A stretch of DNA of 64,000 nt from Methanoplanus endosymbiosus (GTDB taxonomy: Archaea > Halobacteriota > Methanomicrobia > Methanomicrobiales > Methanomicrobiaceae): assembly GCF_024662215.1 (NCBI RefSeq), contig NZ_CP096115.1, forward strand, positions 1,116,001-1,180,000. The letters run 5' to 3'. Position numbers and translations under genes: made by a program. Within the stretch, counting starts at the first letter, position 1. Each line of letters begins with the position of its first letter. Below the pieces are notes generated by a model, which was not told where the DNA came from, did not search any database, and saw only the letters and a program-made list of their open reading frames with translations. Shown one piece after another: positions 25,885-28,578 of the stretch.

Positions 25885-27110
25885 TCAGTCCTTAAGTTCC
25901 ATATCATAATGATTTCTAAGGACTCTTCTGATCTTGTCTGATTTGAGATAATTATTGTCAAGTTCATCAATTATCCGGTCAATTTCACCCGCCTGTTTCA
26001 GAATCTCTTTGTTATCCGGATTCTCATCAAGAGAGGAGATGGCCACAATAACAGATAATGGATTTCTGATATGGTCGTTTAAAATTGCCAGCTGTTCCAG
26101 ATTTTTTTCGATCTGTACAATTGACTTCTTCTCCCTCATATTGCTTTCAAATTCAGATGTCTTATCCCTTAAAAGCAGAATAAATCCGCAATTTACCGCT
26201 TCAGGTTCAAGAGGTGCACTCTGAAAGAGAATATATTTTTTCCCGCCATCACCGTCTGTCTCAATAATCTTTCTGACATTGTCTCTGTTTAAATCATATA
26301 CCATATCCTCTGAAATGTCCTGAAATATATCACTGACACGCAGACCAACCTTATCTTTCGATTTAATCTCCATTATAGTCTCTGCCGATGAATTGATGTC
26401 AATTATGACTCCATTTCTGTCTGCAACAATAACTCCCTCAATCATACTCCTGAATACTTTTTTGTAAGCCTCAGGAATTATCTCAGCAAGGGGAACTCTG
26501 AATACGCCAATATAGATCATAATTCCGGTTAAAAGAAAGAAGAATGGTGTCAGATCAAAAAGATTATCCGGCGCAAAACCTGTCACAAATATTATATTGC
26601 CGATAAACGGAATAAGGGCACCTGCCATAACATAAGAGATCTGCACCCTCTGATGACGCGGGGACGGGATATATGTCCATAACAGGAACAGAAATCCAAG
26701 AAATATAAGCAGGTAAGAGTAAAAAATATAGATATAATACCAGGGACCAAAAAATAACGAAATAAAACCAAAACCATCGATGCTATTATATGCAGCATTC
26801 ACAAAAAGGCCGTGATAACCGTTTGTCAGAATAACTGCCAGTGTCAGAACCGGAATTATGAGAAGGCATGCCAGATTTCTAAGAGAGATGCAACTTTTTC
26901 TGCCGGTATAATCAAGGACAAAACAGAGCCATAAAATGGGAACAAATACCCCGGCAAAGAAGGGAAAGACATTGAATAGCATCATAAATGCATAATTAGA
27001 ATAGTTATATTCAACAGCATAAAATAAAGACCAAAGGGATACAAAGACCATCAGTACTGAAAAAGGAACAGCACCAAGAACATGCTTTTTAGAGGCCGAA
27101 AGGTAAGCAA
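25885..27110 (-). pseudogene. Membrane PAS sensor (7TM histidine-kinase-like), 3' part of a gene split by a TnpB element
   Basis: This frame holds a seven-helix N-terminal sensor region of histidine-kinase type (its consensus KHVLGAVPFSVLMVFVSLWSLFYAVE lies at the cut end), a PAS domain (about residues 200-300: GVIVADRNGVIIDINSSAETIMEI) and a short helical region with the HisKA-like LNDHIRNPLSVI. No ATPase domain follows, so it was never a complete kinase, or it works with another protein. The first in-frame ATG is 27051, but coding similarity continues upstream to 27110, where the IS605-type element begins. The missing first helix lies beyond the element at 28465-28512. Residual expression from ATG 27051 cannot be excluded. 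Confidence 0.8.
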
Positions 27111-27330
27111 GTGAACTACCTCTGGGCTAAAGACCCAGAGGCTTCCTGCTTCATACCCCAAACCATTGTTCGTAAGTCCACAGGCCCTTCCCCTCGTTCC
27201 AAGGGTGTAAAGATATTATATTCCAATTAGATTCTGTTTATCAAAAGCAAATTTCCTGATATTTATTGCGGCATTTATATCCCGGTCATGATGTACCCCA
27301 CAATCCGGACAAATCCAGTCTCTATCAGAT
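27111..27330 (-). ncRNA. Predicted omega (reRNA) guide RNA scaffold of TnpB
   Basis: In this family the guide RNA scaffold overlaps the 3' end of tnpB and runs to the right end of the element; the bases just past the end act as the guide. The 105 nt after the tnpB stop are G-rich and end with the hairpin at 27119-27141 followed by AGTTCAC. The 5' limit given is only a guess from family knowledge. The guide would read into the sensor gene from 27110 downwards (TTGCTTACCTTTCGG). Confidence 0.6.
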
Positions 27331-28328
27331 AAAGTCAAATCCCTGTTGTAATATCCACATTCACTACAGATTTTTGTAGATGGTTCAAATTGTCCTATCC
27401 GTAAGATAGTTTTACCGTGTTTCTGTGCCTTATATTCTAATTGAGTAACAAATGAACTCCATGATGCATCAGCAATATGTTGTGCCAATTTATGATTTTT
27501 TAACATCCCTTCAACATTCAAAGTTTCCAGTGCAATTGCTTGGTTCTCGCATACTAATCTAAAAGAGAGTTTGTGCTGGAAATCGCTTCTTTGATTGTGA
27601 ATTTTTTCATGAATTTTTGCTACTGCATTTTTTGCTTTATTTCTGTTGTTAGAACCTTTTTGTTTTCTACTCAATCGTTTTTGTAACACTTTCAGTCGGA
27701 GAAGTGACTGCTTCAAATATCGGGGATTCTCAATCTTTTCACCATTGGAGAGTATTGCAAAATCTTTGATACCTACATCAATACCCACAGTTGTATCTGC
27801 ATCAAAATGTTGTACAGGAAGTTGTTCCTGTCCATCATCTATCAGAATACTAATAAAAAATTTGCCCGTTGATGTGACTGACACAGTTGCTGTTTTTTCA
27901 GCTCCCTCATATTTCCTGTGTAATTTTGCTTTAACCCATCCAATTTTAGGTAATTTAATTTTATGGGTATCAAAATTCACAATGTAGTGTTGTGGAACTG
28001 AAAATGACTGCACTGGATTTTTCCGGGATTTGAATTTTGGAAATCCTTTCTTTTCCCGGAAGAAACGAGTAAATGCATTTTCAAGATTTAACAATGCACT
28101 CTGTATTGATTGCGAATTAACATCTTTTATCCAATCATGCTCTGATTTCAAATCAGGTAGCATTTTTTGTAATGCAAATCTCGATATTGATTTTCCATCT
28201 GTTTCATAAGTTCGGATTTTATTTTCCAGACCCCAATTGTAGATAAACCTACAGGCACCGAAATGCTGAAAGAACATTTTCTCCTGTTCTTTGTTAGGAT
28301 AGATTCGGTATTTGTAGGCCCTCAACAT
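27216..28328 (-). CDS. tnpB: TnpB RNA-guided nuclease of an IS605/IS1341-type element
   Basis: TnpB is an RNA-guided DNA endonuclease related to Cas12. All RuvC-like catalytic residues appear present: Asp in VGIDVGIKDFAI, Glu in ALETLNVEGM and Asp in HHDRDINAA. The C-terminal zinc finger is complete (CSECGYY and CPDCGVH). I start at ATG 28328 (MLRAYKYRIYPNKEQ, the usual family start), giving 370 residues; TTG 28349 would add seven. The gene is uninterrupted and probably functional. No TnpA transposase is present, so movement would need one supplied elsewhere. Its 3' end and the following 105 bp should encode the guide RNA. Confidence 0.92.
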   Translation of the reverse strand: MLRAYKYRIYPNKEQEKMFFQHFGACRFIYNWGLENKIRTYETDGKSISRFALQKMLPDLKSEHDWIKDVNSQSIQSALLNLENAFTRFFREKKGFPKFKSRKNPVQSFSVPQHYIVNFDTHKIKLPKIGWVKAKLHRKYEGAEKTATVSVTSTGKFFISILIDDGQEQLPVQHFDADTTVGIDVGIKDFAILSNGEKIENPRYLKQSLLRLKVLQKRLSRKQKGSNNRNKAKNAVAKIHEKIHNQRSDFQHKLSFRLVCENQAIALETLNVEGMLKNHKLAQHIADASWSSFVTQLEYKAQKHGKTILRIGQFEPSTKICSECGYYNRDLTLSDRDWICPDCGVHHDRDINAAINIRKFAFDKQNLIGI

Positions 28329-28422
28329 ATAGATTTGGTTTGATTTCAACCCCCCATATATTTTCTTGTAAAACTACAATTACGAAATATATATATGAGA
28401 ACAAAGATGATGTCGCTTACAT

Positions 28423-28445
28423 CCCCTTGGCTAAAGACCAAGGGG
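28423..28445 (-). repeat. Left-end hairpin of the TnpB element
   Basis: Stem CCCCTTGG/CCAAGGGG with loop TCTTTAG on the minus strand. The right-end hairpin (27119-27141) has the same loop and a different 8-bp stem (CCTCTGGG/CCCAGAGG). Such hairpins are recognised by the TnpA transposase in IS200/IS605 elements. Confidence 0.75.
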
Positions 28446-28464
28446 ATTTACGCTAAATTTTTAA

Positions 28465-28512
28465 AAGTGAAATTAATGATGTAAATATTAAAAATAAGTA
28501 CAGATAGATTAT
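28465..28512 (-). pseudogene. 5' fragment of the split membrane sensor gene (first membrane helix)
   Basis: Sixteen codons read IIYLYLFLIFTSLISL, a membrane helix that continues in frame into AYLSASKKH on the far side of the TnpB element. GGGGGAG ends 6 nt before codon 1, the same spacing as the ribosome-binding site of hypF, but codon 1 is ATA rather than ATG and no ATG, GTG or TTG exists in this frame after the preceding stop. Either ATA is used as a rare start or the start codon has mutated. TTATATACT near 28560-28568 is a TATA candidate. Confidence 0.65.
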
Positions 28513-28578
28513 ACTATTCTCCCCCTTAACAGTCCTCCCCGGATGTTAATACAGTAAAATAGTATATAATATTATTGT

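What the first reader, a model, noticed from the sequence alone, without database searches (positions are those of the whole stretch)
25885..28512. TnpB element inserted exactly inside a membrane sensor gene; empty site can be reconstructed in frame
The sensor frame (25885-27110) lacks its first membrane helix and continues upstream into typical family sequence until the element. On the far side, 28465-28512 encodes a membrane helix (IIYLYLFLIFTSLISL). Both borders carry TTCACTT (minus strand). Collapsing the two copies into one joins LISL to AYLSASKKHVLG in frame and recreates a normal 7TM N-terminus of about 423 residues. The element is therefore an insertion into a real gene, and its borders and target are defined to within a few bases.
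Basis: partly seen in the sequence, partly recalled or inferred. Interest (0 to 1): 0.8.

Follow-up and report, generated by a model that had tools for sequence, protein, structure and literature searches.

The report
TnpB insertion sequence splits sensor gene

Summary
The insertion is real and otherwise ordinary. A 1,350-bp TnpB-only IS200/IS605-type element (27111-28460, minus strand) interrupts a HisKA_7TM/PAS sensor gene inside its first membrane helix. A same-genus genome (G001) carries the uninterrupted, syntenic orthologue (81% protein identity, helix present). TTCACTT is not a target repeat: TTCAC at 27111-27115 is the element's own invariant right end (36 of 36 detected right ends), and the left TTCAC is chance flank, abutting none of 31 other left ends. 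The near-identical copies follow TTTAA, and filled/empty pairs at other loci show TTTAA is what excision leaves. The 5' piece has no ATG/GTG/TTG start (GAG where G001 has TTG). TnpB is intact, and the right end has a covarying RNA-like structure. The family's only tnpA copy found in this genome carries a stop codon. New member of a known kind; low interest.

The parts
27111..28460 (-). TnpB-only IS200/IS605-type element, 1,350 bp
   Evidence: Multicopy family with the same ends; border set by filled/empty pairs in G001
28461..28465 (-). TTTAA target motif, retained in the left flank and left behind on excision (predicted TnpB TAM)
   Evidence: Conserved at the left ends of the family; kept in the empty sites
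27216..28328 (-). tnpB, 370 aa; OrfB_IS605 and Cas12f1-like TNB domains; RuvC motifs GIDVG, ALETLN, HDRDI and zinc ribbon CSECG/CPDCG
   Evidence: Pfam, alignment to solved TnpB chains, positions
28423..28445 (-). Left-end hairpin CCCCTTGGTCTTTAGCCAAGGGG; AAAT just 5' of it (28446-28449) is the possible left guide
   Evidence: guide role inferred from IS608
27119..27141 (-). Right-end hairpin CCTCTGGGTCTTTAGCCCAGAGG; GAAG just 5' of it (27142-27145) is the possible right guide
   Evidence: guide role inferred from IS608
27111..27115 (-). TTCAC, invariant right terminus of the element (right cleavage site); not a target duplication
   Evidence: 36 of 36 detected right ends
27111..27225 (-). Predicted omega/reRNA scaffold, conserved right end
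   Evidence: Consensus fold with 29 pairs, 9 with changes on both sides; transcription not tested
27091..27110 (-). Predicted guide segment of the RNA: sensor-gene flank TTGCTTACCTTTCGGCCTCT
   Evidence: Inferred from the ISDra2 arrangement
25885..27110 (-). 3' part of the interrupted sensor gene (6 of 7 membrane helices, PAS, HisKA-like C-terminus); first in-frame ATG at 27051
   Evidence: orthologue in G001
28466..28521 (-). 5' part of the interrupted sensor gene (first helix); GAG where G001 has its TTG start

Best explanation
A TnpB-only element of the IS200/IS605 type inserted immediately 3' of a TTTAA motif that lies in codons of the first membrane helix of a sensor gene (7TM, PAS, HisKA-like C-terminus). 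No target bases were duplicated. Shown: the uninterrupted orthologue, the borders, the shared TTTAA target, the invariant TTCAC right end, the multicopy family. Inferred: a Y1 TnpA acting in trans on the end hairpins moved it, with short guides pairing to TTT at the left site and TTC at the right; the right-end RNA would guide TnpB to the excised TTTAA|TTGCTTACC junction so that the element is copied back; the sensor is probably inactive because its first helix is cut off.
For: G001, the only other genome of the genus held, has an open syntenic orthologue with 81% protein identity and the helix. Family copies share exact ends: right ends all stop at GTAGTTCAC, left ends begin at TTTAA or TTTAT. 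Filled/empty pair L018/L092 scores best with exactly T+TTTAA retained (389 against 381 and 383 for one base fewer or more), and L015/L091 agrees apart from one extra T in a T-run. At the sensor the TTTAA join aligns to G001 without a gap at the junction, the TTCAC join leaves a 6-bp gap. TnpB domains and motifs; covarying right-end structure. Same target motif as a characterised archaeal TnpB (PMC10640517).
Against: The G001 sensor site reads CTTAT at the motif, so the ancestral TTTAA at this one locus is inferred. A tnpA of this family without a stop was not found in this genome. Guide RNA, nuclease activity and loss of sensor function were not tested.
Confidence: 0.93

Rival explanations
1. 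One reading: the target is TTCAC(TT), present at both borders, and excision collapses the two copies into one.
For: TTCACTT is present at both borders and the collapsed frame is open.
Against: TTCAC abuts none of 31 other left ends but ends all 36 right ends; empty sites keep TTTAA; the join leaves a 6-bp gap against the orthologue.
Confidence: 0.03
2. No insertion into a gene: the sensor naturally starts at ATG 27051 and the upstream helix is chance.
For: ATG 27051 is the first standard start codon in frame in this genome, and no standard start lies in the 5' piece.
Against: G001 continues the same frame through the helix without the element, and the sequence is conserved across the junction; relatives have an N-terminal segment there; the Pfam 7TM profile is cut short at 27051.
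Confidence: 0.02
3. The sensor gene had already lost its start codon and was decaying before the element landed, so the insertion broke nothing.
For: GAG in place of the G001 TTG, and a 6-bp in-frame difference in helix 1.
Against: The other 407 codons are open, and dN 0.106 and dS 0.65 against G001 show constraint for most of the history. The order of events cannot be read from one genome.
Confidence: 0.2

Closest known systems
Sulfolobus islandicus IS200/IS605 elements with SisTnpB1 (PMC10640517)
   Same: Archaeal TnpB element; TTTAA and TTTAT motifs next to the left end; copies with tnpB alone and copies with tnpA plus tnpB; conserved right-end RNA region
   Different: Different lineage; in S. 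islandicus TTTAA goes with tnpA+tnpB and TTTAT with solo tnpB, whereas here TTTAA goes with solo tnpB copies as well; nuclease activity untested here
ISDra2 of Deinococcus radiodurans (PMC8612924)
   Same: TnpB related over its whole length (solved chains 8h1j, 8bf8); insertion 3' of a pentanucleotide without duplication; right-end RNA layout
   Different: Motif TTTAA instead of TTGAT; no tnpA in this copy
IS608 of Helicobacter pylori (PMC5934647)
   Same: End hairpins with a short guide just 5' of each stem (IS608 AAAG and GAAT; here AAAT and GAAG) and unequal left and right cleavage sites
   Different: TTTAA and TTCAC instead of TTAC and TCAA; pairing is inferred here

Membership tests
IS200/IS605 family (TnpB only) | Insertion 3' of a fixed short motif, no target duplication | tested here: met
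   TTTAA at left ends, empty sites keep it once
IS200/IS605 family (TnpB only) | Subterminal hairpins at both ends, fixed right terminus | tested here: met
IS200/IS605 family (TnpB only) | TnpB with RuvC motifs and zinc ribbon | tested here: met
IS200/IS605 family (TnpB only) | Y1 TnpA able to move it | tested here: inconclusive
   None in this copy; one family copy in the genome has tnpA with an in-frame TGA; a related tnpA without a stop lies beside a family left end in G021
IS200/IS605 family (TnpB only) | Right-end guide RNA and RNA-guided cleavage | not testable with these tools
   Only a covarying consensus fold was found
HisKA_7TM sensor proteins (PF16927) | 7TM region above the curated cut-off | tested here: met
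   179.9 bits against 28.6
Full histidine kinase | HATPase_c catalytic domain | tested here: not met
   No such match in the window protein or its orthologue; only a weak HisKA match in G001

The most novel reading that the evidence does not exclude
The element works as a reversible switch of the sensor: a TnpA supplied in trans excises it and restores the frame, while its own TnpB RNA, whose guide is sensor sequence, selects against the restored allele. The missing start codon and the stop in tnpA argue against this.
Probability: 0.03. Interest if true: 0.6.

Novelty: new member of a known kind. Interest (0 to 1): 0.2.

Why it matters
It defines an archaeal TnpB family with a TTTAA target, several near-identical copies and empty sites in a sister species, so that target, right terminus and guide can be read from sequence. 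It also shows why a flanking repeat seen at one copy should not be used to set the borders of such elements.

Tried and rejected
The TTCACTT collapse was tested against the other left ends and the empty sites and rejected. Rfam gave only chance matches in the region. A protein-pattern scan of public species genomes found no named orthologue, so the organism was not identified by name. The G001 counterparts of L021, L022 and L025 are too diverged or ambiguous at the junction to set the boundary alone. A paper search for insertion sequences in Methanoplanus, a guess at the genus from genome size and relatives, gave nothing relevant.

Full report
What is there. On the minus strand a 370-residue TnpB gene (27216-28328) lies between two hairpins with the shared core GGTCTTTAGCC. 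Downstream of it a frame open to 25885 encodes a HisKA_7TM/PAS protein that lacks the first part of the 7TM profile. On the far side, 28512-28465 encodes a hydrophobic helix.

The insertion is real. The only other genome of the genus that is held, G001, has an uninterrupted open frame with 81% protein identity in the same neighbourhood: the sequence on the upstream side of the element is 83% identical and that on the downstream side 82.5%. The G001 protein begins (M)NSILYLFLIFTSLISILIAYLSASKK; the window, with the element left out, reads ENSIIYLYLFLIFTSLISLLIAYLSASKK. Most of the more distant relatives examined have an N-terminal segment before this point, with possible starts about 20-40 residues upstream.

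The element is multicopy: eight full-length near-identical copies counting this one (96-98% identity), a copy with tnpA, interrupted and partial copies, a diverged subfamily and very short copies. All 36 right ends detected stop at GTAGTTCAC and then diverge, so TTCAC at 27111-27115 is element sequence. None of the 31 other left ends has TTCAC against the element; conservation begins with TTTAA (main group) or TTTAT (second group), with a few decayed variants.

Filled and empty sites agree. Flank pairs of twelve copies, joined with the six bases T+TTTAA kept, were searched in G001. L018/L092 is gap-free at the junction and scores best with exactly these six bases (389 against 381 and 383). L015/L091 agrees apart from one extra T in a T-run. 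L021, L022 and L025 are ambiguous. At the sensor the TTTAA join aligns with G001 without a gap at the junction, while the TTCAC join leaves a gap of 6 bp; the simple score at this locus is 218 for five and 216 for six retained bases, but five would break the frame. G001 itself reads CTTAT at the motif, so its allele lacks TTTAA.

How it most likely works. The arrangement matches IS200/IS605 elements, which insert 3' of a fixed motif without duplication (ISDra2 TTGAT, IS608 TTAC; PMC8612924 and PMC5934647). In IS608 four bases 5' of each hairpin (AAAG left, GAAT right) pair with the cleavage sites. At the same places here stand AAAT and GAAG, which can pair with TTT of TTTAA and TTC of TTCAC; this is inference. 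The last 115 bases have a consensus fold with 29 pairs, 9 of them with changes on both sides in at least one sequence, as expected of a right-end guide RNA. The guide would be the sensor sequence that follows the right end, and the target the excised junction TTTAA|TTGCTTACC, after the ISDra2 model. TnpB of Sulfolobus islandicus, also archaeal, cleaves next to TTTAA (PMC10640517).

State of the parts. TnpB is full length with its catalytic motifs. This copy has no tnpA. One family copy in the genome has tnpA with an in-frame TGA. A related tnpA without a stop lies beside a family left end in G021; the other TnpA of this genome is about 30% identical and none of this family's ends was found beside it. 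The 5' piece of the sensor has no ATG/GTG/TTG in frame: where G001 has TTG the window has GAG. Whether the start was lost before or after the insertion cannot be decided here. Downstream of the junction dN is 0.106 and dS 0.65 against G001, so the gene was under constraint for most of its history.

Verdict. A confirmed but ordinary insertion-sequence event, with the target and junction corrected. Loss of sensor function, the guide RNA and nuclease activity remain inferences.

Noticed in passing
G000 loci L035, L036, L037, L038, L039, L041, L044, L045, L047 (outside the window): Nine 52-bp remnants made of the left part of the left end fused to the right part of the right end. In most the switch falls inside the shared GGTCTTTAGCC (two match 52 of 52), as if copies collapsed by recombination between their two hairpins and left a solo scar.
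   Followed up: partly
G000 loci L031, L032, L033 (outside the window): Short elements that keep about 55 bp of the left end and about 105 bp of the right end, that is the ends and the predicted guide RNA scaffold without tnpB.
   Followed up: partly
G001:C1:2592113-2593468 (L073) versus window 27111-28466: The element is 97% identical between the two species whereas the DNA around the sensor is only about 83% identical, which suggests recent exchange or recent activity rather than descent.
   Followed up: no
G000:C1:1761644-1763358 (L051): The one copy of the family with tnpA (divergent from tnpB) has an in-frame TGA in tnpA, and its tnpB is frame-shifted, so the family may now be without a working transposase of its own here.
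   Followed up: partly
window 28501-28540 (minus strand): A G-rich ribosome-binding-like stretch ahead of the sensor helix is shared with G001, but the start codon is not (TTG in G001, GAG here).
   Followed up: partly
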